Of a stretch of 38,362 nt of DNA, positions 1 through 14,541 are shown piece by piece (the first letter of the stretch is position 1; the number at the start of each line of letters is the position of its first letter). The DNA comes from Microcaldota archaeon (lineage in GTDB: Archaea > Micrarchaeota > Micrarchaeia > Micrarchaeales > Micrarchaeaceae), in contig JAJYEJ010000002.1 in the NCBI GenBank assembly GCA_021785805.1, forward strand, positions 3,073 through 41,434. Direction: 5' to 3'. The notes beneath the pieces were generated by a model. It made no database searches. It saw only the letters and a program-made list of their open reading frames with translations, and had not been told where the DNA came from. The position numbers and the translations under genes are program-made.

Positions 1-275
1 AGCACTCCGGTCAATGGGCTTATCGTCACCGTCGGGGTGGTCGTGTTCGGAATCGCCTTCAGTACTGGAGGGGTCGCATTGAAGTAAATCGGTGTCGCAC
101 CACCGTTCGCTATGACGAGATGAAGCGTTTCGCTTCCGCTCATATTCACTACGAAGTTCAGCGGACCTGCTACCTCCTCAAGCTGGCCGTTGGCCACTCC
201 AAGGTCAAGCAGAGAGAAAGAAAGAAAAAGCAAGAGAAGGACCGATAAAGCTATAGTCCTCTCTTTGTTCGGCAT
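1..275 (-). CDS. Secreted protein, N-terminal part only (runs off the left edge)
   Basis: The frame is open from an ATG at 275 to the window edge and gives about 91 residues. The N-terminus has two charged residues, then a strongly hydrophobic stretch (roughly residues 8-25), which looks like a Sec signal peptide or an N-terminal anchor. The mature part is rich in Thr, Pro, Asn and Val, as in cell-surface beta proteins. The start was chosen because GGTG lies just upstream and because the ATG follows the stop of the preceding secreted-protein gene by only 13 bases, so the two are probably co-transcribed. I do not recognise a family. The real C-terminus is outside the window, so length and function cannot be judged. 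Confidence 0.7.
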   Translation of the reverse strand, partial: MPNKERTIALSVLLLLFLSFSLLDLGVANGQLEEVAGPLNFVVNMSGSETLHLVIANGGATPIYFNATPPVLKAIPNTTTPTVTISPLTGV

Positions 276-288
276 TCACATAACACCA

Positions 289-798
289 TTAGCAGGTTAC
301 TTCCAGTGTTATCGTCTGCGTATATACTGCCGCTGTCTGCCCTGCTGGAACATTGAGCCCGAAGTATATGTCATTCGTTGATGCTCCGGTCGGGACAACT
401 ATCCCGGTGTCGACCCCAGTGGTGTATCCCAATGCGGTTCCCGGACCTCCCGATGTTTTCGCCCACAGGGTATTGCTCACACCCATCGTGCCCGAAGGGG
501 ATCCAGTCCAATCTACGCCATATACGACAGCATTCGCATTAGTGTTGCCTATCGTGTCCGAAAGCACTATAACATTTGTAGTCGGTGCGCTTGAGCCTGG
601 CAGTACTGTGCCAAAGCTAATCGCAGTGTTCGATATGTCGAGAGCGCACGTGAGAGGCACATTGACCGTGCCCGTAATCGTGTTCGTCGCGGCGCCTGCA
701 AACATCACTCCGCCTTGCAACAGAGCGAATCCCAACACTGCGAGAAGCATTGCCGTAGCTGCTATGCCGAAGCCAGCCGCTGTCCTATTACTTCTCAT
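289..798 (-). CDS. Secreted single-domain surface protein (Cys-bounded beta domain)
   Basis: The protein has 169 residues. An N-terminal hydrophobic segment (about residues 9-36) after MRSNR looks like a signal peptide or uncleaved anchor. The rest is one domain of about 119 residues that starts at a Cys (about residue 51) and ends with Cys as the very last residue. It aligns by eye with the last 119 residues of the large neighbour at 872-4621: both have the order C-x-(I/L)-D-(V/I)-S, FGTV, GVSNT, KTSG, NDIYFGL, YTQTITLE and a terminal Cys. The two Cys probably form a disulfide that closes the domain, which would place it outside the cell. It has its own TATA-like box (about 823-835), so it can be expressed separately from the large protein. 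No known family is recognised; a structural or adhesive role is an inference. Confidence 0.85.
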   Translation of the reverse strand: MRSNRTAAGFGIAATAMLLAVLGFALLQGGVMFAGAATNTITGTVNVPLTCALDISNTAISFGTVLPGSSAPTTNVIVLSDTIGNTNANAVVYGVDWTGSPSGTMGVSNTLWAKTSGGPGTALGYTTGVDTGIVVPTGASTNDIYFGLNVPAGQTAAVYTQTITLEVTC

Positions 799-822
799 TT
801 AATCGCCTACTCAATTCTGTAT

Positions 823-835
823 GTTAAATTAAAAA
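823..835 (-). promoter_or_regulatory. TATA box for the 169-residue secreted protein
   Basis: Read on the minus strand, TTTTTAATTTAAC lies about 32 bases before the ATG at 798. This implies a transcription start a few bases ahead of the start codon. It sits in the 73-base gap after the stop of the upstream large gene. Confidence 0.5.
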
Positions 836-871
836 GCCTTTTGGTATCGTTCAGTATAATGGAATGGCACC

Positions 872-3800
872 TCAACAGCTCGTCTCGAGGGTTATGGTCT
901 GGGTATACGAAGGCGACGGGGACTGTCCTGTAGGCACACCAAGACCGAAATATATGTCGTTTCCGGAGCCTGCCGGGAGCAGTATGCCTGTGTTGGCCGG
1001 GAGGGTCCCGAGCGGCGTAGCCGAGCCCCATGGGGTGCCGCTGGTCTTCGAATAGACCGTATTGCTCACCCCGAAGTTCAATGGCCCTGAAGCCCAGTTG
1101 TTTCCGTAGACGAACAATATGGAGTTGACGTTCCCTACGTCGGTGACCGCCACCGAGTTGTCCGTAGGCAGGCTTGTGGAGGGGTATACGGTCCCGAAAG
1201 CTATGTTGTTGTCGCTCACGTCTATCCCGCATGTCGCCGGGGTGAAAGTAACCTGGACCGTATTGCCTGCGATGGCGGCTCCCGAAGCTGGAGATACAAG
1301 ATAATTCACCGCCCCGACCATCTGGTCAGGTATGCTGTAAGAGTACGTTCCTGGCGTGTCCTGGAACTGTATCGTATTCTGTGTCGAGGAAAGCGTCTGT
1401 CCATTGTATATGACGTTCCACGCGTTTCCGCCTGGGAGACCGGTCTCGGCGAAGCTGGTTATCCCGTTCCAGTCCGCTGTAACGATACCGTTGCCGTTGA
1501 CGTTGAGGTTGGTCACTGTGGCTATGGAGTTGAAAACTGTGAGGTTGGCGCTATTGCTTGTCGTCCACCTGCTGAATACGTAGTTGCCGGAGGGCGGCGC
1601 CAGAGCCTGTATGTTTCCGGTCCCTATGACTCTCATCACCTGTCCATTCGAATATACGCTCTCGTTCGTGTTTATTGTCGCCGAGGACGGGGTGTCATCC
1701 AGTGTCACATACCTGGGCTGGAACACATAAGCCGCAAGCGCGACTGCTCCGGCGGATTTTGGCGTCGCGGAGGCGGTGTAGCTCCCAGATGCCGTGTTCG
1801 TGCAGGTTGCGATTTCGGTAGCGGCGCCAGGATTCCCGGCGTAATCCGCCAGTAGGTATTCCTGCCGTGTGCAGCCGCTCGGTATCGATGTGCTTGAGAA
1901 CTCCTGCCCGCCGCTCGCTATCAACAGCAATACGAAGGAGTTGGAGGAGGCCACATTGTAGTTGAGCGTCTGACTCGTTACGCTGTTGCCTGCGCTTGTA
2001 TACAGTTGGTAATTGGTCTGATTTATCCCTATCCCGGCTATGGACTCTCCAGCATTCCCGGAGGCGCCTACCGTATTCGCGGAGCATACGTTTGTGTTCT
2101 GATGCCCCACTGATGCGGCCGGGGGCGGACTGGAAGCGTCTGTAGCATTAGCGTCTCCGAACCACGTCAGAGGCTTTGGCGAAGTCGAGAATGTCGTAAA
2201 GGCGCCTGCATTGCAGTAGTGTCCCGAATATGCGCCAGGGAGGGAAACGGACAACAGGCCGCCCAGAGGCAACGAGTTCGAGCCGAAGCTGAACGGTACC
2301 GAATATGCGGCAGCCGTTATCTGGAAATTTCCTGTCAGCGAAGCTGAAGTATAGTTCGCGTTTCCAAGCGTGTCGAACAACTCGGCGTAGGTCCCCGGGG
2401 CTGAACTCGTGGTATACGCCGAAGATGACGAGGTCGTCGCGGTAAGGACATTGTTGACATATAAGCTTCCAGTAAGCTGGGAGTTGTAGGTCGTTATGGA
2501 ATAATCCACCACGCCCCCGTTGCCGTCATATTGATAGCTCTGCGGCACAGTGAGGGAGAGCGAAGGATAGGCCTGCACTACTGTCAGGGCGTTGTCCGAC
2601 GTATACTGGCTTACTGTGGAATCGTATGCCACTACGTTATACGTGCCTGCCGGCATCGGTGCGTCGGAAGGGGGGTTGCATGTCGAAATGGCATCACAGG
2701 ATACCGATCCAGTGCCAGTGGCAACCACGCTTCCGGGGGATGTCCCTTTCCCTACTAATATCTGTACAGTATCGGAACCGGATGGTGCTGTCGCAGTTAT
2801 CGTGTCACCCTGGTCATACGCGACCGAATTGCTCTGCATAACCAACGATAACGTACCTGCCTTGGAGAAGGCCACAGAGACGGAATTCCCAGCCACTGCG
2901 CTCCCGCTTTGGGGGAACGGGACATAGGTGCTTCCGCCAACTATTTGATTGGCTATGGAAAACGGATACGTCCCAGGTACGGTATCGAACGTGAGCGTAT
3001 TCGATGTCGAGGATTCCAATGAACTGTCATATACGACGTTCCATGTGGTGCTTGGAGGTAGCCCTGACTCGCTGAATGCGGTTATCCCATTGAAATCCGC
3101 GGTTATTATCCCATTGCCTTCTATGGTGGCCACGGTCGACGTCGAGAGCGCGTTCCCGATTACTATATTCGATGGATTGCTCACGGTCCAGCCTGTAAAG
3201 CTGTATGTCCCTGTCGCAGGCGCAGCTGCCGTTATGGGATTCGTCCCTATCACGGTCATCGTCGCCCCGTTCGGATAGCGGATCCCGTTATTGGTTATTA
3301 TGTTCCCTGTAGCTGGATTTATGTCCAATACGACCCCATAGGGGGCGAAGACATATGCTGCCAAAACCCCTATGCCGGGGGATGCCGATGGCGTCATGGT
3401 AAGCGTGTATGTGCCTGGATTCTGTGTGCATACTGCACTTACGGATGAATCCTGTCCGGAGGTGAGCAGGGACGTGGTCTTGGTGCAGCCTGAAGGCAGG
3501 GCGCCCAGGGAGCAATCCTCCCATCCGCATGCACCGACGATCGCGACAAAGCTATTCGACGCGCCCACCGTATAACTCAGCGTTGTCTTAGAACCGCCGC
3601 TCACGTTCGCCGCACTATACTGCGCGGACCTTGAGATGAGCGCATTGAATCCTATCCCTGAAGTTATCTCATACCACGAGGTGGACTGCTGGCACCACCC
3701 GACATTGGTCGACTGGTATCCTGTCGAGGCGCAGTTGCCTCCGCAGCTGCTGTAATAAGCGCTCTTCGCCACGGTGAACGATTCTGCAGGTATGCTGTAT

Positions 3801-4621
3801 CCTCCGGTACCGCATGCGAATACGTACGACGTGAAGCCTGGAGGCAGCGTAAGTACGACGTTGGTGGTGGAGCTTGACTGGGTATTCCCTGCAAGATAAG
3901 AGACCGCATAGCTCGAGAGCGAATCCGATACGCCTGAGAAGTAGAATGACGTGATGTTTGAACCGTATAAGGAGGTCGGGAGAGGAAGCCACTTCCCGCT
4001 GTTGTATTTGAACAAGGTAACGTTGCCCGGATTTCCACCGTTGCCTATGATCCAGCTTCTGGGGACAGAGAAATTATACGTGACGTTCGATATGAACTGA
4101 TCGGCATTCGCTGCAGTGCCGAGCAGGGAGGCAGCGCTCTGATTGATCTGTATGTATTGATAGACATCGCCAGGTGCGGTTTCCGGCGCCTGACTAAAAG
4201 GTACGGACGAGTTCGATACCGTGATGTTGAGCTGCTTTATCCTGCTATGCAGCCGTATATCCATGCTCCTGAACGCGGTCCCTCCCAGGCTGATGCGGAA
4301 CCTCTCCCCTCTCACGTCTAACGATCCCCTCCATTCCATCCCTGTGCCGTTAAGAGCGAAGCCCTCCGGAGGCGTGCCTATGGAAAGTTGCGCTCCGTAT
4401 GTTCCGGTTCCGTTCGTCTGGTTGCCTCCGTACGATGTGGTGTTGGCCGATATGTTGCCTGACGCCTCACTGCTGTTATATCCGCCAGATGATGAATTGG
4501 TCGCGTTCGTATGATTGTAAGCCGTATCGCCTGCCGCTCCAGCATGAGCTATCAGTGCTGCCATAGAAAGCAGCATTCCGATTACGAGCCAAGCGAGAAC
4601 CAGATGCACATTCCTGATCAT
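872..4621 (-). CDS. Giant secreted surface protein with PGF-pre-PGF-like domain, duplicated module and Cys-bounded C-terminal domain
   Basis: The protein has 1249 residues. Order of parts: signal peptide (about 1-29); Asn/Ser/Thr/Gly-rich linker (about 32-75) with many N-glycosylation sequons; a region (about 80-245) matching the PGF-pre-PGF pattern of archaeal surface proteins (VTYNFSVPRSWI, then a Lys-Trp-LPLP turn and SFYFSGVSDS); module A1 (about 330-600); two Ig-like stretches (about 600-780); module A2 (about 880-1130); and a C-terminal domain (about 1131-1249) shared with the neighbour at 289-798. A1 and A2 are diverged copies: both carry SNSFV, a PSGCT block, GNGI(I/V)TAD(F/W)NGIT and (S/A)E(S/T)GLP. 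There is no C-terminal transmembrane anchor and the last residue is Cys. The start is supported by the signal peptide and by a TATA box about 30 bases upstream. A role as surface layer component or adhesin is an inference; no enzyme motif is visible. Confidence 0.88.
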   Translation of the reverse strand: MIRNVHLVLAWLVIGMLLSMAALIAHAGAAGDTAYNHTNATNSSSGGYNSSEASGNISANTTSYGGNQTNGTGTYGAQLSIGTPPEGFALNGTGMEWRGSLDVRGERFRISLGGTAFRSMDIRLHSRIKQLNITVSNSSVPFSQAPETAPGDVYQYIQINQSAASLLGTAANADQFISNVTYNFSVPRSWIIGNGGNPGNVTLFKYNSGKWLPLPTSLYGSNITSFYFSGVSDSLSSYAVSYLAGNTQSSSTTNVVLTLPPGFTSYVFACGTGGYSIPAESFTVAKSAYYSSCGGNCASTGYQSTNVGWCQQSTSWYEITSGIGFNALISRSAQYSAANVSGGSKTTLSYTVGASNSFVAIVGACGWEDCSLGALPSGCTKTTSLLTSGQDSSVSAVCTQNPGTYTLTMTPSASPGIGVLAAYVFAPYGVVLDINPATGNIITNNGIRYPNGATMTVIGTNPITAAAPATGTYSFTGWTVSNPSNIVIGNALSTSTVATIEGNGIITADFNGITAFSESGLPPSTTWNVVYDSSLESSTSNTLTFDTVPGTYPFSIANQIVGGSTYVPFPQSGSAVAGNSVSVAFSKAGTLSLVMQSNSVAYDQGDTITATAPSGSDTVQILVGKGTSPGSVVATGTGSVSCDAISTCNPPSDAPMPAGTYNVVAYDSTVSQYTSDNALTVVQAYPSLSLTVPQSYQYDGNGGVVDYSITTYNSQLTGSLYVNNVLTATTSSSSAYTTSSAPGTYAELFDTLGNANYTSASLTGNFQITAAAYSVPFSFGSNSLPLGGLLSVSLPGAYSGHYCNAGAFTTFSTSPKPLTWFGDANATDASSPPPAASVGHQNTNVCSANTVGASGNAGESIAGIGINQTNYQLYTSAGNSVTSQTLNYNVASSNSFVLLLIASGGQEFSSTSIPSGCTRQEYLLADYAGNPGAATEIATCTNTASGSYTASATPKSAGAVALAAYVFQPRYVTLDDTPSSATINTNESVYSNGQVMRVIGTGNIQALAPPSGNYVFSRWTTSNSANLTVFNSIATVTNLNVNGNGIVTADWNGITSFAETGLPGGNAWNVIYNGQTLSSTQNTIQFQDTPGTYSYSIPDQMVGAVNYLVSPASGAAIAGNTVQVTFTPATCGIDVSDNNIAFGTVYPSTSLPTDNSVAVTDVGNVNSILFVYGNNWASGPLNFGVSNTVYSKTSGTPWGSATPLGTLPANTGILLPAGSGNDIYFGLGVPTGQSPSPSYTQTITLETSC

Positions 4622-4646
4622 GCTACCACTACAAATTATGCGGGAG

Positions 4647-4658
4647 ACTTATTAAGGT
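4647..4658. promoter_or_regulatory. Shared near-palindromic TATA box between the giant surface protein and the phosphohexomutase gene
   Basis: ACTTATTAAGGT lies in the 71-base gap between the divergent genes. CTTATTAAG reads almost the same on both strands. Its centre is about 32 bases from the minus-strand ATG at 4621 and about 40 bases from the plus-strand ATG at 4693, so one box could serve both directions. Confidence 0.5.
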
Positions 4659-4692
4659 TTTCATAGCAGATAACCTAAGGATCTGCAAAGGG

Positions 4693-6078
4693 ATGTCCAT
4701 GTCATATGCGATAAGGTTCGGCACTAACGGATGGAGGGACAGGATGGACGGTGGGTTCAGCGAAGAGAATGTCCTAAGGGCGCTTCACGCCATAGCCGCA
4801 TACTCGAAAAAGACCTACGGCAAAGGCACCGTCATAATCGGTTTCGACGCCAGGAACCATTCACTGGAGTACGCACACCTGGCTTATGACATGTTCACGT
4901 CACAGGGCTTCGATGCGATGATGACCGACTCCCCGACCCCGACTCCTGTGCTGGAATTTTCCGTCAAGGATAAGGGCGCCGTCTGCGGTGTGGAGATAAC
5001 CGCGAGCCACAACCCTGCAGTGTATAACGGCATAAAGTTCATACCTGGATACGGCGCCCCAGCGAGCAAGGCGATAACAGACGAGATAGAGCGAATGGTG
5101 CCGTTTCACGCTGGTGTCCCAAGGCACGCCGAGCCGAAGACATTCTCGCCAAAAGCGGAGTACCTTAACGCGATAAAAGGGAAGATAGACCTTGGCAAGG
5201 TATCATCGCTCAGGGTAGTGGTGGATCCGTTCTACGGGACCACTATCGGATACCTGTCAGAAGCGCTCGCACAGGATGGGGTCAAGGTGGAGCAGATACA
5301 CAGCAATTACGACCCGGACTTCGGCGGCATGAACCCGGAGCCGAATGAAGAGTCGACCGCAGAGCTTGCTAAGAAAGTGCTCGAAACAGGAGCGGATATC
5401 GGAATAGCGAACGACGGCGACGGTGACAGATTTGTAGCCATAGACGGCAAAGGCGCGTTCTACCCTTCAAACAAGGCATGCCTTATAATCGCGGAGTACC
5501 TGTTCGGCACAAAAAGGAAAACCGGCAGGGTCGCCAAGACGGTCGCCGTTACCGCTGCGCTTGATAGGCTGTGCGAGGCGTATGGCGTCCCAGTGACTGA
5601 GGTCCCGGTGGGCTCCAAGTACATATCGCAGGAATTGATGGATGGCGCAGTTCTGGGAGTGGAGTCCACGGCAGGAGTCAGTTTCGGGTGGTGGCTCCCG
5701 GACAGGGACGGCATAGCGGCAGGGATGCTACTGTGCGAGATCATGGCGAACACCGGAAAACCGCTCGACACGCTGTGGCAGGAGGCAGCGAGCAAGTATG
5801 GATACGGGGTATACGAGGAGTTGGAATTTCCCCTCCAGCAGAAGCTTGAGGTGAACATGGACTTCCTTGTGAAAGAGGATTCCCGTTCTGAGTTCGGAGG
5901 GGCGCAGATAACAGGAAGGAGCAAGATCGATGGGATAAAGTTCCTTCTGGATGATGGGGCTTGGGTGTTAATAAGACGGTCCGGCACCGAACCCCTGGTA
6001 AGGGTTTACATAGAAGCTGCAACGAAGAGCAGGGCCGACGAGCTCATCGTGGCGGTAAAAAGGATCCTCGGATTATAG
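4693..6078 (+). CDS. Phosphoglucomutase/phosphomannomutase (alpha-D-phosphohexomutase family)
   Basis: This 461-residue protein has the normal length and all signature motifs of the family. It interconverts hexose 1- and 6-phosphates (glucose, mannose or glucosamine type) for sugar-nucleotide synthesis in the cytoplasm. The catalytic phosphoserine is Ser105 in TASHNPAVYNGIKF. The Mg-binding loop is NDGDGDRF (Asp241, Asp243, Asp245). The C-terminal phosphate-binding loop is RRSGTEP (about 428-434). Substrate preference cannot be fixed from the sequence, so no gene symbol is given. ATG occurs at 4693 and again at 4699; the second has a better-spaced purine-rich site (GGGATG) and the two differ by only two residues. 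The gene stands alone, divergent from the giant surface protein, whose glycans might draw on its product. Its last six bases overlap the convergent gene at 6073-7149. Confidence 0.96.
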   Translation: MSMSYAIRFGTNGWRDRMDGGFSEENVLRALHAIAAYSKKTYGKGTVIIGFDARNHSLEYAHLAYDMFTSQGFDAMMTDSPTPTPVLEFSVKDKGAVCGVEITASHNPAVYNGIKFIPGYGAPASKAITDEIERMVPFHAGVPRHAEPKTFSPKAEYLNAIKGKIDLGKVSSLRVVVDPFYGTTIGYLSEALAQDGVKVEQIHSNYDPDFGGMNPEPNEESTAELAKKVLETGADIGIANDGDGDRFVAIDGKGAFYPSNKACLIIAEYLFGTKRKTGRVAKTVAVTAALDRLCEAYGVPVTEVPVGSKYISQELMDGAVLGVESTAGVSFGWWLPDRDGIAAGMLLCEIMANTGKPLDTLWQEAASKYGYGVYEELEFPLQQKLEVNMDFLVKEDSRSEFGGAQITGRSKIDGIKFLLDDGAWVLIRRSGTEPLVRVYIEAATKSRADELIVAVKRILGL

Positions 6079-7149
6079 CGCCTTCGCCCTATCGCCCGCG
6101 TCTGTGCGCAGCGAGCCTATCGCATCAAAGTAGACCCCTTCGTTCTCATGTATGTATCCCAGAAGGGTCTGGCAGTCCTCGTGCGGCAACAACGGTGTCG
6201 AAGAGAGCAGTCTAACGGTCTCTATATCTATCACTAAGCCTGTCCTGCTCAGCTTTATCAATCCTGCCATCGCCCTGCCCGCCATGCTGAGTATCCAATC
6301 CAGATTCGCGCGCCTCCTTACTCCGTCCAAAGCGGCTTCGTATGCGGCTATCGGCTCCTTCAATGCCTTCAGGTTGTCGTCCAGCGCCCTTGCGTCGAGC
6401 ATAAGCCTATTCGAGGTAGCGACATCGTCGACGTTCAGTAACCTCTCCAGGTTGACCCTGCTAAAGAATACATTGAGTACGTCCTTGACGCAGTCCATGG
6501 CTTTGGTCGTGAGGGCATAATATGTATGGATCTCGGTAAGTCCACCGATCGTCTCCTTGACCTTATCGCTTGCCTCCCCTCCGTCCTTGACGTAAGCCAG
6601 TGCGGCGTCTATCGCCGCCTTCAGCTTCGGGATGTCCCGCTCATCCTGGCCCACCAAGCCATCAAATATACCGTCAACGGATTCGTCCAGGCCGCAAGGG
6701 TCAAAGGCATCCGCCAGCCTGCGGAGAATCTCAACAGTGTAGTGGAAGTTCTGCGGCCCAATCATATTATAGAGATCGTAGCCAATCTGTGTCCAGTCTC
6801 CAGTGTCGCCTTCGAGCCTGGACACGAGCGAATCCGAATCCTTGCACATGTCGTTTGCAAGCCCCATTGCCACGGTGGCGTACTCGATCCTAAGGATATC
6901 AAGTATGATCTGTACCTCGTCCCCGTGGATAAAATTCCTGGCTTTGTCGGACCTGACCTTAGGGGAATCTATTGGATTGAACTTGCCGTCAAAGAAGAAG
7001 ATATGCTCGAACAGCCCGCTTAGCTGCGATGTTACCTCATTAGCCCTACCCAGTGCGCGTTCTCCATAATCGATTGCGCAGTCATTGTGCAGTGTAATCT
7101 CCATCCCGCTTATTGGCATTATGTTCTTTCCGGTTTTGCGTGCATCCAT
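6073..7149 (-). CDS. Hypothetical protein, 358 residues, mainly helical
   Basis: I do not recognise this protein. It is soluble-looking, with no signal peptide or membrane segment, and is predicted to be mostly alpha-helical from long runs with Leu, Ala, Asp and Arg heptad-like spacing (about residues 150-330). It contains few Cys and no obvious catalytic motif. The start at 7149 fits a TATA-like element (minus-strand CCTTTTTATAT, about 7199-7208) some 50 bases upstream. Codon choice resembles that of the neighbours, so it looks native and functional. It heads a run of three unrecognised genes on the same strand (to 8434). The 3' end overlaps the phosphohexomutase gene by six bases. Confidence 0.8.
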   Translation of the reverse strand: MDARKTGKNIMPISGMEITLHNDCAIDYGERALGRANEVTSQLSGLFEHIFFFDGKFNPIDSPKVRSDKARNFIHGDEVQIILDILRIEYATVAMGLANDMCKDSDSLVSRLEGDTGDWTQIGYDLYNMIGPQNFHYTVEILRRLADAFDPCGLDESVDGIFDGLVGQDERDIPKLKAAIDAALAYVKDGGEASDKVKETIGGLTEIHTYYALTTKAMDCVKDVLNVFFSRVNLERLLNVDDVATSNRLMLDARALDDNLKALKEPIAAYEAALDGVRRRANLDWILSMAGRAMAGLIKLSRTGLVIDIETVRLLSSTPLLPHEDCQTLLGYIHENEGVYFDAIGSLRTDAGDRAKAL

Positions 7150-12957: not shown

Positions 12958-13710
12958 CTACCTGCAAGCCTTATCTCTGTCCAAGCGCCTCATGAGCGCG
13001 TTCAACCTCTCCTTTGTCAGTTGTTCCTCATCAAGTATCCTCACGGAACCCGGATAGAACATGAGTACCTCGCGTTCCCCGCTGAATGTGGTGCCGGAGT
13101 CCCATACCCCGTCGAAACCGAGGGATATCGCGTATTCCGTCAAAAAACCCGAAACTTCAGACAGGGATTCGTCCCTTTCCACCGGATTTCCAGAAAGCAC
13201 ACCATTCCTGATCCTAGTCAGGCAGTCCAAAAACGAATCCTTGTTAAGCAGGAAATACGACTCTTCCGGTCGCCATTCCCTTTCCAATAGGGCTACGCCA
13301 AGATAAGACCAGTCTGCATCATCTATCATATTGCCAACGAAATTGGCGAAGCCTGCAGCAATCGTGTCATATGCGTCACTCTTCATAGCGCTGAAAAGGC
13401 GCACATCCCTAATCTCGCATCTATACAGGGAGGCGCCTGCGCCTCTCTTTATATCATGTTCGCGATACAGTATGGCTGACTTCTCATTGTCTGTAAGGTA
13501 GACCCCGTCAAACATGGATGTTATGATGGAAGGTTCAAGGGTCCTGAGCCCAGGGACGGTCGCTCTATAGAAACGCCCCTTTGAGATGTGCGTGCTATAC
13601 CTTCTAATACACTCATCGCTGATCGTGCCTCTTGCCAAACGCTTAAGGGTATCCCTAGGGGTCTCGATCTCGTGCTCTATGTGTCTGTAGCCAACGGTCA
13701 TATCAATCAT
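12958..13710 (-). CDS. Possible ADP-ribosyltransferase-fold protein
   Basis: The protein has 250 residues from the ATG at 13710, which overlaps the stop of the upstream gene; ATG 13701 is also possible, and the frame is open up to 13782. The pattern resembles ART-fold toxins and polyvalent-protein ART domains. FYR (Arg49) follows a short N-terminal helical part. GVYLTDNEKSAILY (69-82) matches the usual yl(S/T)-x(5-6)-A-x2-Y strand-helix. SLYRCEI (about 94-100) is a core strand. GFDGVWDSG (198-206) with GEREVLMFYPGSVRIL (211-226) matches the terminal GyDG...E-x-vvF-p-x-x-I segment, making Glu214 the candidate catalytic Glu. The middle (about 110-190) would be an insertion. This is motif recognition by eye; a RES-type ART relative is an alternative. 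It is translationally coupled to the gene upstream, which may be a regulator or antidote. Confidence 0.6.
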   Translation of the reverse strand: MIDMTVGYRHIEHEIETPRDTLKRLARGTISDECIRRYSTHISKGRFYRATVPGLRTLEPSIITSMFDGVYLTDNEKSAILYREHDIKRGAGASLYRCEIRDVRLFSAMKSDAYDTIAAGFANFVGNMIDDADWSYLGVALLEREWRPEESYFLLNKDSFLDCLTRIRNGVLSGNPVERDESLSEVSGFLTEYAISLGFDGVWDSGTTFSGEREVLMFYPGSVRILDEEQLTKERLNALMRRLDRDKACR

Positions 13711-14503
13711 TCCCAGAGGAGGGCGCATCACTGAGCTGGCTGTCCAGCTTTCCGGGCAAAGAGAAGTAATCGCGGGCTTCACGTACCAGGCATTTTGCCT
13801 TATCGGTGAGCCCCCAGGTGTCCTGCGGCCCTGAATTCTGTTGAAGCTTTATCAAGTATCCTTCAGATGTGAGCCTGTCCATAAACCTCTCGAACGTATC
13901 CAACCTCCTTTCCCTGGCGGCGCCCCTTGGCCTTTTCATACCGTTGAAGTACAGGAGTTTGATTCTGGTGCCAGTCACCACGTCAAGGGCATAGCATGCC
14001 GACAGGATTAAGACGTCCTTGAACGGCAGTTTATGGTCTACAGCTTCGCCGAGATAGTCTCCGGAATGGCGCTTCCGCCCAGCGTCGACCCTTAACATCC
14101 TTTCCCTACTGTCCCCTATCGCGCAGAAACCGTCCAGCAAGGACGATATATCCCTGATAAGATCGTGCAGCTCCGATGAAGCTCTTACGGAGTGGAGATC
14201 ATTATCGTGTATGAGGTACCTGCCCCTTATCATCCCCGAAACTATATATGCCGCATTCCTCGGGCTCGACCCTTCCGGCATCCGTTCACGGACGAAGCCG
14301 GTGAGGCTACTGCAGCAGATATGGCTCTCTTGAAGGGCGTCTCTGAATATGATAATACGGCCTATTGTGGAAAGACCGAGGCTCCTGTGGCTGTCCATGA
14401 GAGCGGAGAATGGCTTATAGATATCCCTCCAGCCCGGGATGGCGGCATCCGCTCCGCCCGCCACCGAAGCATAACTGTCCCTCCTTACGCTTATTGCTGT
14501 CAT
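13703..14503 (-). CDS. Hypothetical protein with probable C-terminal winged helix; partner of the ART-like gene
   Basis: The protein has 266 residues. The N-terminal two-thirds are unrecognised and predicted helical. The C-terminal part (about 193-250) reads as a winged helix: a helix with FERFMDRLTSEGYL, a short polar wing, then WGLTDKAKCLVREA. It is overlapped by the start of the ART-like gene, so the two should be made together. A DNA-binding regulator or neutralising partner would fit a toxin-antitoxin-like unit, but that is an inference. The ATG at 14503 lies six bases after the transcription start predicted from the TATA box at 14531-14541, so it is probably leaderless. The alternative is an unrelated archaeal protein that merely shares an operon. 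Confidence 0.72.
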   Translation of the reverse strand: MTAISVRRDSYASVAGGADAAIPGWRDIYKPFSALMDSHRSLGLSTIGRIIIFRDALQESHICCSSLTGFVRERMPEGSSPRNAAYIVSGMIRGRYLIHDNDLHSVRASSELHDLIRDISSLLDGFCAIGDSRERMLRVDAGRKRHSGDYLGEAVDHKLPFKDVLILSACYALDVVTGTRIKLLYFNGMKRPRGAARERRLDTFERFMDRLTSEGYLIKLQQNSGPQDTWGLTDKAKCLVREARDYFSLPGKLDSQLSDAPSSGND

Positions 14504-14530
14504 AGGATCCGAAGTACCTGGTTTTTCCAG

Positions 14531-14541
14531 ATATTTATATG
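14531..14541 (-). promoter_or_regulatory. TATA box for the winged-helix/ART-like pair
   Basis: Minus-strand CATATAAATAT lies about 33 bases before the ATG at 14503, in the 56-base gap after the Lhr helicase gene. It gives the pair its own promoter separate from the helicase operon. Confidence 0.6.

What the first reader, a model, noticed from the sequence alone, without database searches (positions are those of the whole stretch)
12958..14503. Overlapping winged-helix plus ADP-ribosyltransferase-like pair: possible new toxin-antitoxin or effector unit
The downstream protein shows FYR, GVYLTDNEKSAILY and the terminal GFDG...GEREVLMFYPGSVRI segment in the order expected of ART-fold enzymes, with Glu214 as candidate catalytic residue. 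The upstream protein has a winged-helix-like C-terminus. The genes overlap at the stop/start and share one TATA box (14531-14541). A regulator or antidote overlapping a toxin is a classic layout, and I know of no such pair described in this archaeal group.
Basis: partly seen in the sequence, partly recalled or inferred. Interest (0 to 1): 0.75.

Follow-up and report, generated by a model that had tools for sequence, protein, structure and literature searches.

The report
Orphan archaeal ADP-ribosyltransferase-like gene
A tiny-genome archaeon carries a gene for a protein related to enzymes that attach ADP-ribose to other molecules, of a kind best known from bacterial viruses; the proposed toxin-antitoxin partnership with the overlapping gene is not supported, because related genomes carry the two genes separately.

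Summary
Both overlapping genes are real: 13703-14503(-), 266 aa, and 12958-13710(-), 250 aa, with an 8-nt overlap. The downstream product is ADP-ribosyltransferase (ART)-like. No library names it directly, but it has relatives in 7 other genomes of the phylum (one a Candidatus Micrarchaeaceae record), one of which passes the Pfam ART-PolyVal cut-off. Profile comparison with phage ART-PolyVal proteins aligns the whole domain (E 1.8e-15). Structure prediction failed (pLDDT 42), so the fold rests on homology. The motif is R49 (H in distant relatives and all phage members), Y71 and Y82; Glu214 is not conserved, and E212 or D200 are equal or better acid candidates. The pair is not a unit: the upstream protein has one relative in 301 genomes, beside a cupin-like gene in a genome where no ART was found, while the other ARTs are solo genes next to unrelated neighbours, some in mobile-element or toxin-antitoxin surroundings. 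The winged helix of the upstream protein is plausible but unproven. Most likely this is a sporadic, laterally spread H-Y-E-clade ART effector gene with an upstream local regulator. New variant of a known kind, modest interest.

The parts
12958..13710 (-). gene 2: ADP-ribosyltransferase-like protein, 250 aa; ART domain about residues 45-232
13564..13566 (-). codon of Arg49 (FYR), aligned with the HG[ST] histidine of ART-PolyVal/PARP-type ARTs
   Evidence: R in the 3 nearest relatives (G023, G013a, G271), H in 5 other archaeal and all 7 phage members
13465..13500 (-). codons 71-82: Tyr71 (GVYLT) and Tyr82, matching the GxGIYF...Y segment of PARPs
   Evidence: Tyr71 in 15 of 16, Tyr82 in 14 of 16
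13069..13077 (-). codons of Glu212, Arg213, Glu214 at the start of the last strand (EREVLMF); alternative acid candidates
   Evidence: position 212 is E/D in 8 of 16, position 214 is E in 4 of 16 and D in 1
13108..13119 (-). codons 198-201, GFDG motif; Asp200 is the most conserved acid of the C-terminal half
   Evidence: Asp in 13 of 16
13703..14503 (-). gene 1: 266-aa protein of unknown family, possible winged-helix C-terminus
   Evidence: no family match; model unusable
13703..13710 (-). overlap ATGATTGA of the gene 1 stop with the gene 2 start
14531..14540 (-). TATA-box-like ATATAAATAT in the 56-nt gap after the Lhr helicase gene; spacing fits a nearly leaderless transcript
   Evidence: function not shown

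Best explanation
Gene 2 encodes a small stand-alone ADP-ribosyltransferase of the H-Y-[E/D] (PARP-like) side of the superfamily, related to the ART-PolyVal / Tox-ART-HYD2 domains of phages and mobile elements. It would bind NAD+ through R49 (in place of the usual His), Tyr71 and Tyr82, and transfer ADP-ribose to a macromolecule, or hydrolyse NAD+, when expressed. It is an accessory gene spread sporadically, probably by lateral transfer, in Micrarchaeota and is probably used in conflict with mobile elements or competitors. Gene 1, transcribed first from the shared promoter, is most likely a small DNA-binding regulator that keeps expression low, not an obligate antitoxin. Shown by sequence: homology to ARTs, sporadic spread, no conserved partner. 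Inferred: catalytic activity, target, biological role, and the regulator role of gene 1.
For: A relative in G014 passes the ART-PolyVal cut-off (36.6 vs 31.2 bits, E 9.5e-9) and others match it weakly. Profile-profile comparison with phage proteins, of which four tested score 41.6-53 bits to that family: family profile E 1.8e-15, probability 98.5%; P0001 plus one relative alone E 5.6e-7, 92%. Controls: gene 1 family 0.04%; best column-shuffled decoy E about 0.009. A joint profile against PDB sequences puts PARPs in nearly all of the top 30 places, individually weak at E 0.05-0.3, aligned on the GxGIYF...Y segment. Sporadic spread: 8 of 301 genomes of the phylum, different neighbours each time, one relative in a stretch with a phage-type integrase. 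In related genomes the Lhr-downstream and ABC-upstream neighbourhoods lack both genes.
Against: P0001 itself matches no Pfam, NCBIfam, PADLOC or PHROG family. The structure model is too poor to use. The strand-5 acid is not conserved in the family, so some members may be inactive or work differently. R49 and Ala50 depart from the usual HG[ST]. No macrodomain was found in the 84%-complete genome, so no sign of a reversal enzyme of that type.
Confidence: 0.6

Rival explanations
1. The two genes form a true toxin-antitoxin module: gene 1 binds and neutralises or represses the ART toxin encoded by gene 2.
For: Tight overlap, likely shared promoter, antitoxin-first order, ART homology downstream. 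ARTs of the HYD2 clade have been grouped with a class of toxin-antitoxin systems (PMC5512222).
Against: The families co-occur only in this genome. The gene 1 relative in G001 sits beside a cupin-like gene and no ART was found in that genome. Seven other genomes hold the ART without gene 1. Antitoxins of known modules usually travel with their toxin.
Confidence: 0.15
2. Gene 2 is an ART-fold pseudoenzyme or ADP-ribose/NAD-binding protein without transferase activity.
For: R replaces H, A replaces G in HG[ST], and the strand-5 acid position is variable across the family.
Against: P0001 itself keeps R49, Y71, Y82, D200, E212 and E214, and its relative in L007 keeps all six at 30% overall identity.
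Confidence: 0.2
3. The overlap is incidental: two unrelated accessory genes landed side by side at a rearrangement point between the Lhr and ABC-transporter genes, without functional link. (This concerns the pairing and can be true together with an active ART.)
For: In related genomes neither the region downstream of Lhr nor that upstream of the ABC gene holds either gene; the families are separable.
Against: An overlap of 8 nt with one upstream promoter-like site means they are very likely co-transcribed now.
Confidence: 0.35

Closest known systems
ART-PolyVal (Pfam PF18760) / Tox-ART-HYD2 clade of phage polyvalent proteins (PMC5512222)
   Same: Same motif order and end-to-end profile alignment; YHGS-like, GxGIYF...Y, GYDG and final FxP...I motifs
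   Different: R in place of H in strand 1 of P0001 and its nearest relatives; stand-alone archaeal gene with about 40 residues before the domain; P0001 itself scores below Pfam detection
PARP family (PF00644), H-Y-E ARTs
   Same: GxGIYF...Y segment aligns
   Different: Only marginal sequence scores; catalytic Glu not conserved in the family
DUF3990 (PF13151)
   Same: Weak matches of several relatives
   Different: Below cut-off for every archaeal member tested
DarT/DarG and RES/Xre (ParT/ParS) toxin-antitoxin systems
   Same: Small gene next to an ART-superfamily gene
   Different: No DarT or RES match, no macrodomain in the genome, no conserved partner

Membership tests
ART superfamily (ADP-ribosyltransferase fold) | sequence homology over the NAD-binding core | tested here: met
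   controls
ART superfamily (ADP-ribosyltransferase fold) | predicted or solved three-dimensional fold | tested here: inconclusive
   mean pLDDT 41.8, not searched further
ART-PolyVal / Tox-ART-HYD2 | match to PF18760 above its cut-off | tested here: not met
   P0001 has no match, although relative L004/L023 of G014 passes; hence filed as related, not as member
ART-PolyVal / Tox-ART-HYD2 | H (strand 1), Y (strand 2), D (strand 5) active site (PMC5512222) | tested here: not met
   R49 for H, Tyr kept, last-strand acid E212/E214 rather than D (strand numbering inferred, no model)
type II toxin-antitoxin module | toxin and antitoxin genes conserved together | tested here: not met
   together only in the window's genome
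type II toxin-antitoxin module | toxicity of one product and neutralisation by the other | not testable with these tools
   needs expression assays
DarTG | DarT homology and macrodomain partner | tested here: not met
   no DarT match; no macrodomain in the genome
RES/Xre | RES-domain homology | tested here: not met
   no RES match up to E 10
winged-helix regulators (gene 1) | homology to a winged-helix family or a winged-helix model | tested here: inconclusive
   no family match except Replic_Relax E 0.1 for the C-terminal piece; model pLDDT 34

The most novel reading that the evidence does not exclude
A winged-helix protein and an R-Y-E/D variant of a phage-type ART form a new archaeal toxin-antitoxin or abortive-infection unit in Micrarchaeota, in which the regulator both represses transcription and restrains an ART that has swapped the clade's histidine for arginine.
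Probability: 0.1. Interest if true: 0.65.

Novelty: new variant of a known kind. Interest (0 to 1): 0.35.

Why it matters
A search of the held papers found none naming ADP-ribosyltransferases together with Micrarchaeota. A scattered family of phage-type ART genes in archaea with about 1-Mb genomes would add an archaeal branch to the ART-PolyVal/HYD2 group and suggests that such effectors move between mobile elements and reduced archaea. The natural H-to-R change in one branch is a direct test case for which strand-1 residue an H-Y-E-type ART needs.

Tried and rejected
Direct family searches of both proteins gave nothing. Viral contig scans with P0001, A1 and A2 found no relatives. DarT and RES were rejected for lack of matches and of their partners. 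Glu214 as the sole catalytic residue was rejected on conservation. An imperfect palindrome TAtCTGGAAAAACCAGgTA between the TATA-like element and the gene 1 start (about 14515-14533) was considered as an operator and set aside: by a rough estimate of my own (not a tool result) one such repeat is expected by chance about every second stretch of this size.

Full report
Observation. Reading the - strand confirms two open frames, 13703-14503 (266 aa, P0002) and 12958-13710 (250 aa, P0001), overlapping by ATGATTGA. The gene 2 frame stays open to a GTG at 13782, so the true start, and with it the overlap, is likely but not certain. A TATA-like ATATAAATAT lies at 14531-14540 in the 56-nt gap behind the Lhr-type helicase gene. 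The octamer TATAAATA is not rare in this window (2 found, 0.94 expected); its place, not its rarity, makes it credible. Synonymous codon usage supports both frames as coding, gene 2 being the weakest of 20 genes tested.

What gene 2 is. P0001 matches no Pfam, NCBIfam, PADLOC or PHROG family convincingly, nor a PDB chain. It has relatives in the same phylum: first three, and with profiles eight genomes of 301 including its own, with two copies in G013. One of them, also found in a public record, is from a Candidatus Micrarchaeaceae archaeon. The relative in G014 passes the curated cut-off of ART-PolyVal (PF18760; 36.6 vs 31.2 bits), and three others match it weakly with E 4e-5 to 0.016.

Fold by homology. 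As reference I took phage proteins; four of the six were tested and are clear ART-PolyVal members (41.6-53 bits), the other two are 66-72% identical to one of those. Profile-profile comparison aligned the archaeal family to them from residue 45 to 232 with E 1.8e-15 and 98.5% probability. Using only P0001 and its relative from L007 the result was E 5.6e-7 and 92%. The gene 1 family as a control gave 0.04%. Forty column-shuffled versions of the phage alignment gave a best E of about 0.009; one value recurs in all three lists and may be a stale read, so this control is rough. A joint profile against PDB sequences listed PARP13, PARP4, tankyrases, PARP14, PARP3 and PARP12 first, each individually weak (E 0.05-0.3), aligned on the GxGIYF...Y segment. 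The AlphaFold model had only two sequences to work with and is unusable. I therefore regard the ART fold as very likely by homology and not as shown by structure.

Active site. Across 16 aligned archaeal and phage proteins: position 49 is R in P0001 and its three nearest relatives and H in the rest; Tyr71 is kept in 15 and Tyr82 in 14; Asp200 in 13; position 212 is E or D in 8; position 214 is E in 4 and D in 1. The published clade is described as H-Y-D (PMC5512222), with H-Y-E for PARPs and I, L or Y in place of Glu in some mono-ARTs (PMC7955679).

Gene 1. P0002 has one detectable relative in 301 genomes, in G001 of the same genus (about 30% identity). No family matches it; its C-terminal piece touches Replic_Relax at E 0.1, which is not significant. 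The model has pLDDT 34. The winged helix is a reasonable reading of the sequence (inference) and no more.

Is it a unit? The two families occur together only in the window's own genome. In G001 the gene 1 relative is directly upstream of a cupin-like gene and no ART was found (the cupin match itself is weak, E 0.017). The other ARTs stand alone next to what look like a radical SAM gene, an M24 peptidase, a Fic gene, a TatD-like gene, a DNA polymerase IV gene, or in integrase-bearing or toxin-antitoxin-rich stretches (only Fic and the integrase were checked by family search, the other names are from reading the sequences). In genus relatives with the same Lhr helicase, or with the same ABC-transporter gene, the neighbouring region holds neither gene. 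The pair looks like a recent local arrangement at a rearranged site.

Mechanism and role. The most likely reading is a laterally spread ADP-ribosyltransferase effector under a local DNA-binding regulator. Homology and spread are shown; catalysis, target and role are inferred. A toxin-antitoxin unit is possible (ARTs of this clade have been linked to such systems, PMC5512222) but the main test for it, conserved pairing, came out negative. No macrodomain that could reverse the modification was found in the 84%-complete genome.

Verdict. The ART half of the finding is right and not trivial, since no library names this protein; the pair half is not supported. New variant of a known kind, interest 0.35.

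Noticed in passing
L020 (G013:C9), 2616-6577: A second ART paralogue follows what look like VapBC, kinase, RelBE and TFIIB-zinc-ribbon genes, a dense toxin-antitoxin island in a micrarchaeal genome.
   Followed up: partly
L018 (G011:C3), 4779-6607: An ART gene lies 165 nt behind a Fic-domain gene on the same strand (Fic E 1.2e-23); its protein has a 33% identical relative on a Nocardia plasmid (E 8e-19).
   Followed up: partly
L024 (G023:C4), 163-6889: The G023 ART lies in a stretch with a phage-type integrase and HNH-like and ribbon-helix-helix-like genes, probably an integrated element.
   Followed up: partly
L040, 15-3503: A 1162-aa viral multidomain protein carries an internal ART-like domain ending in IFDPKNVKIV, nearly the archaeal motif; it resembles a polyvalent protein.
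   Followed up: partly
window 872-4621: 1249-aa repetitive, probably secreted surface protein with internally repeated segments.
   Followed up: no
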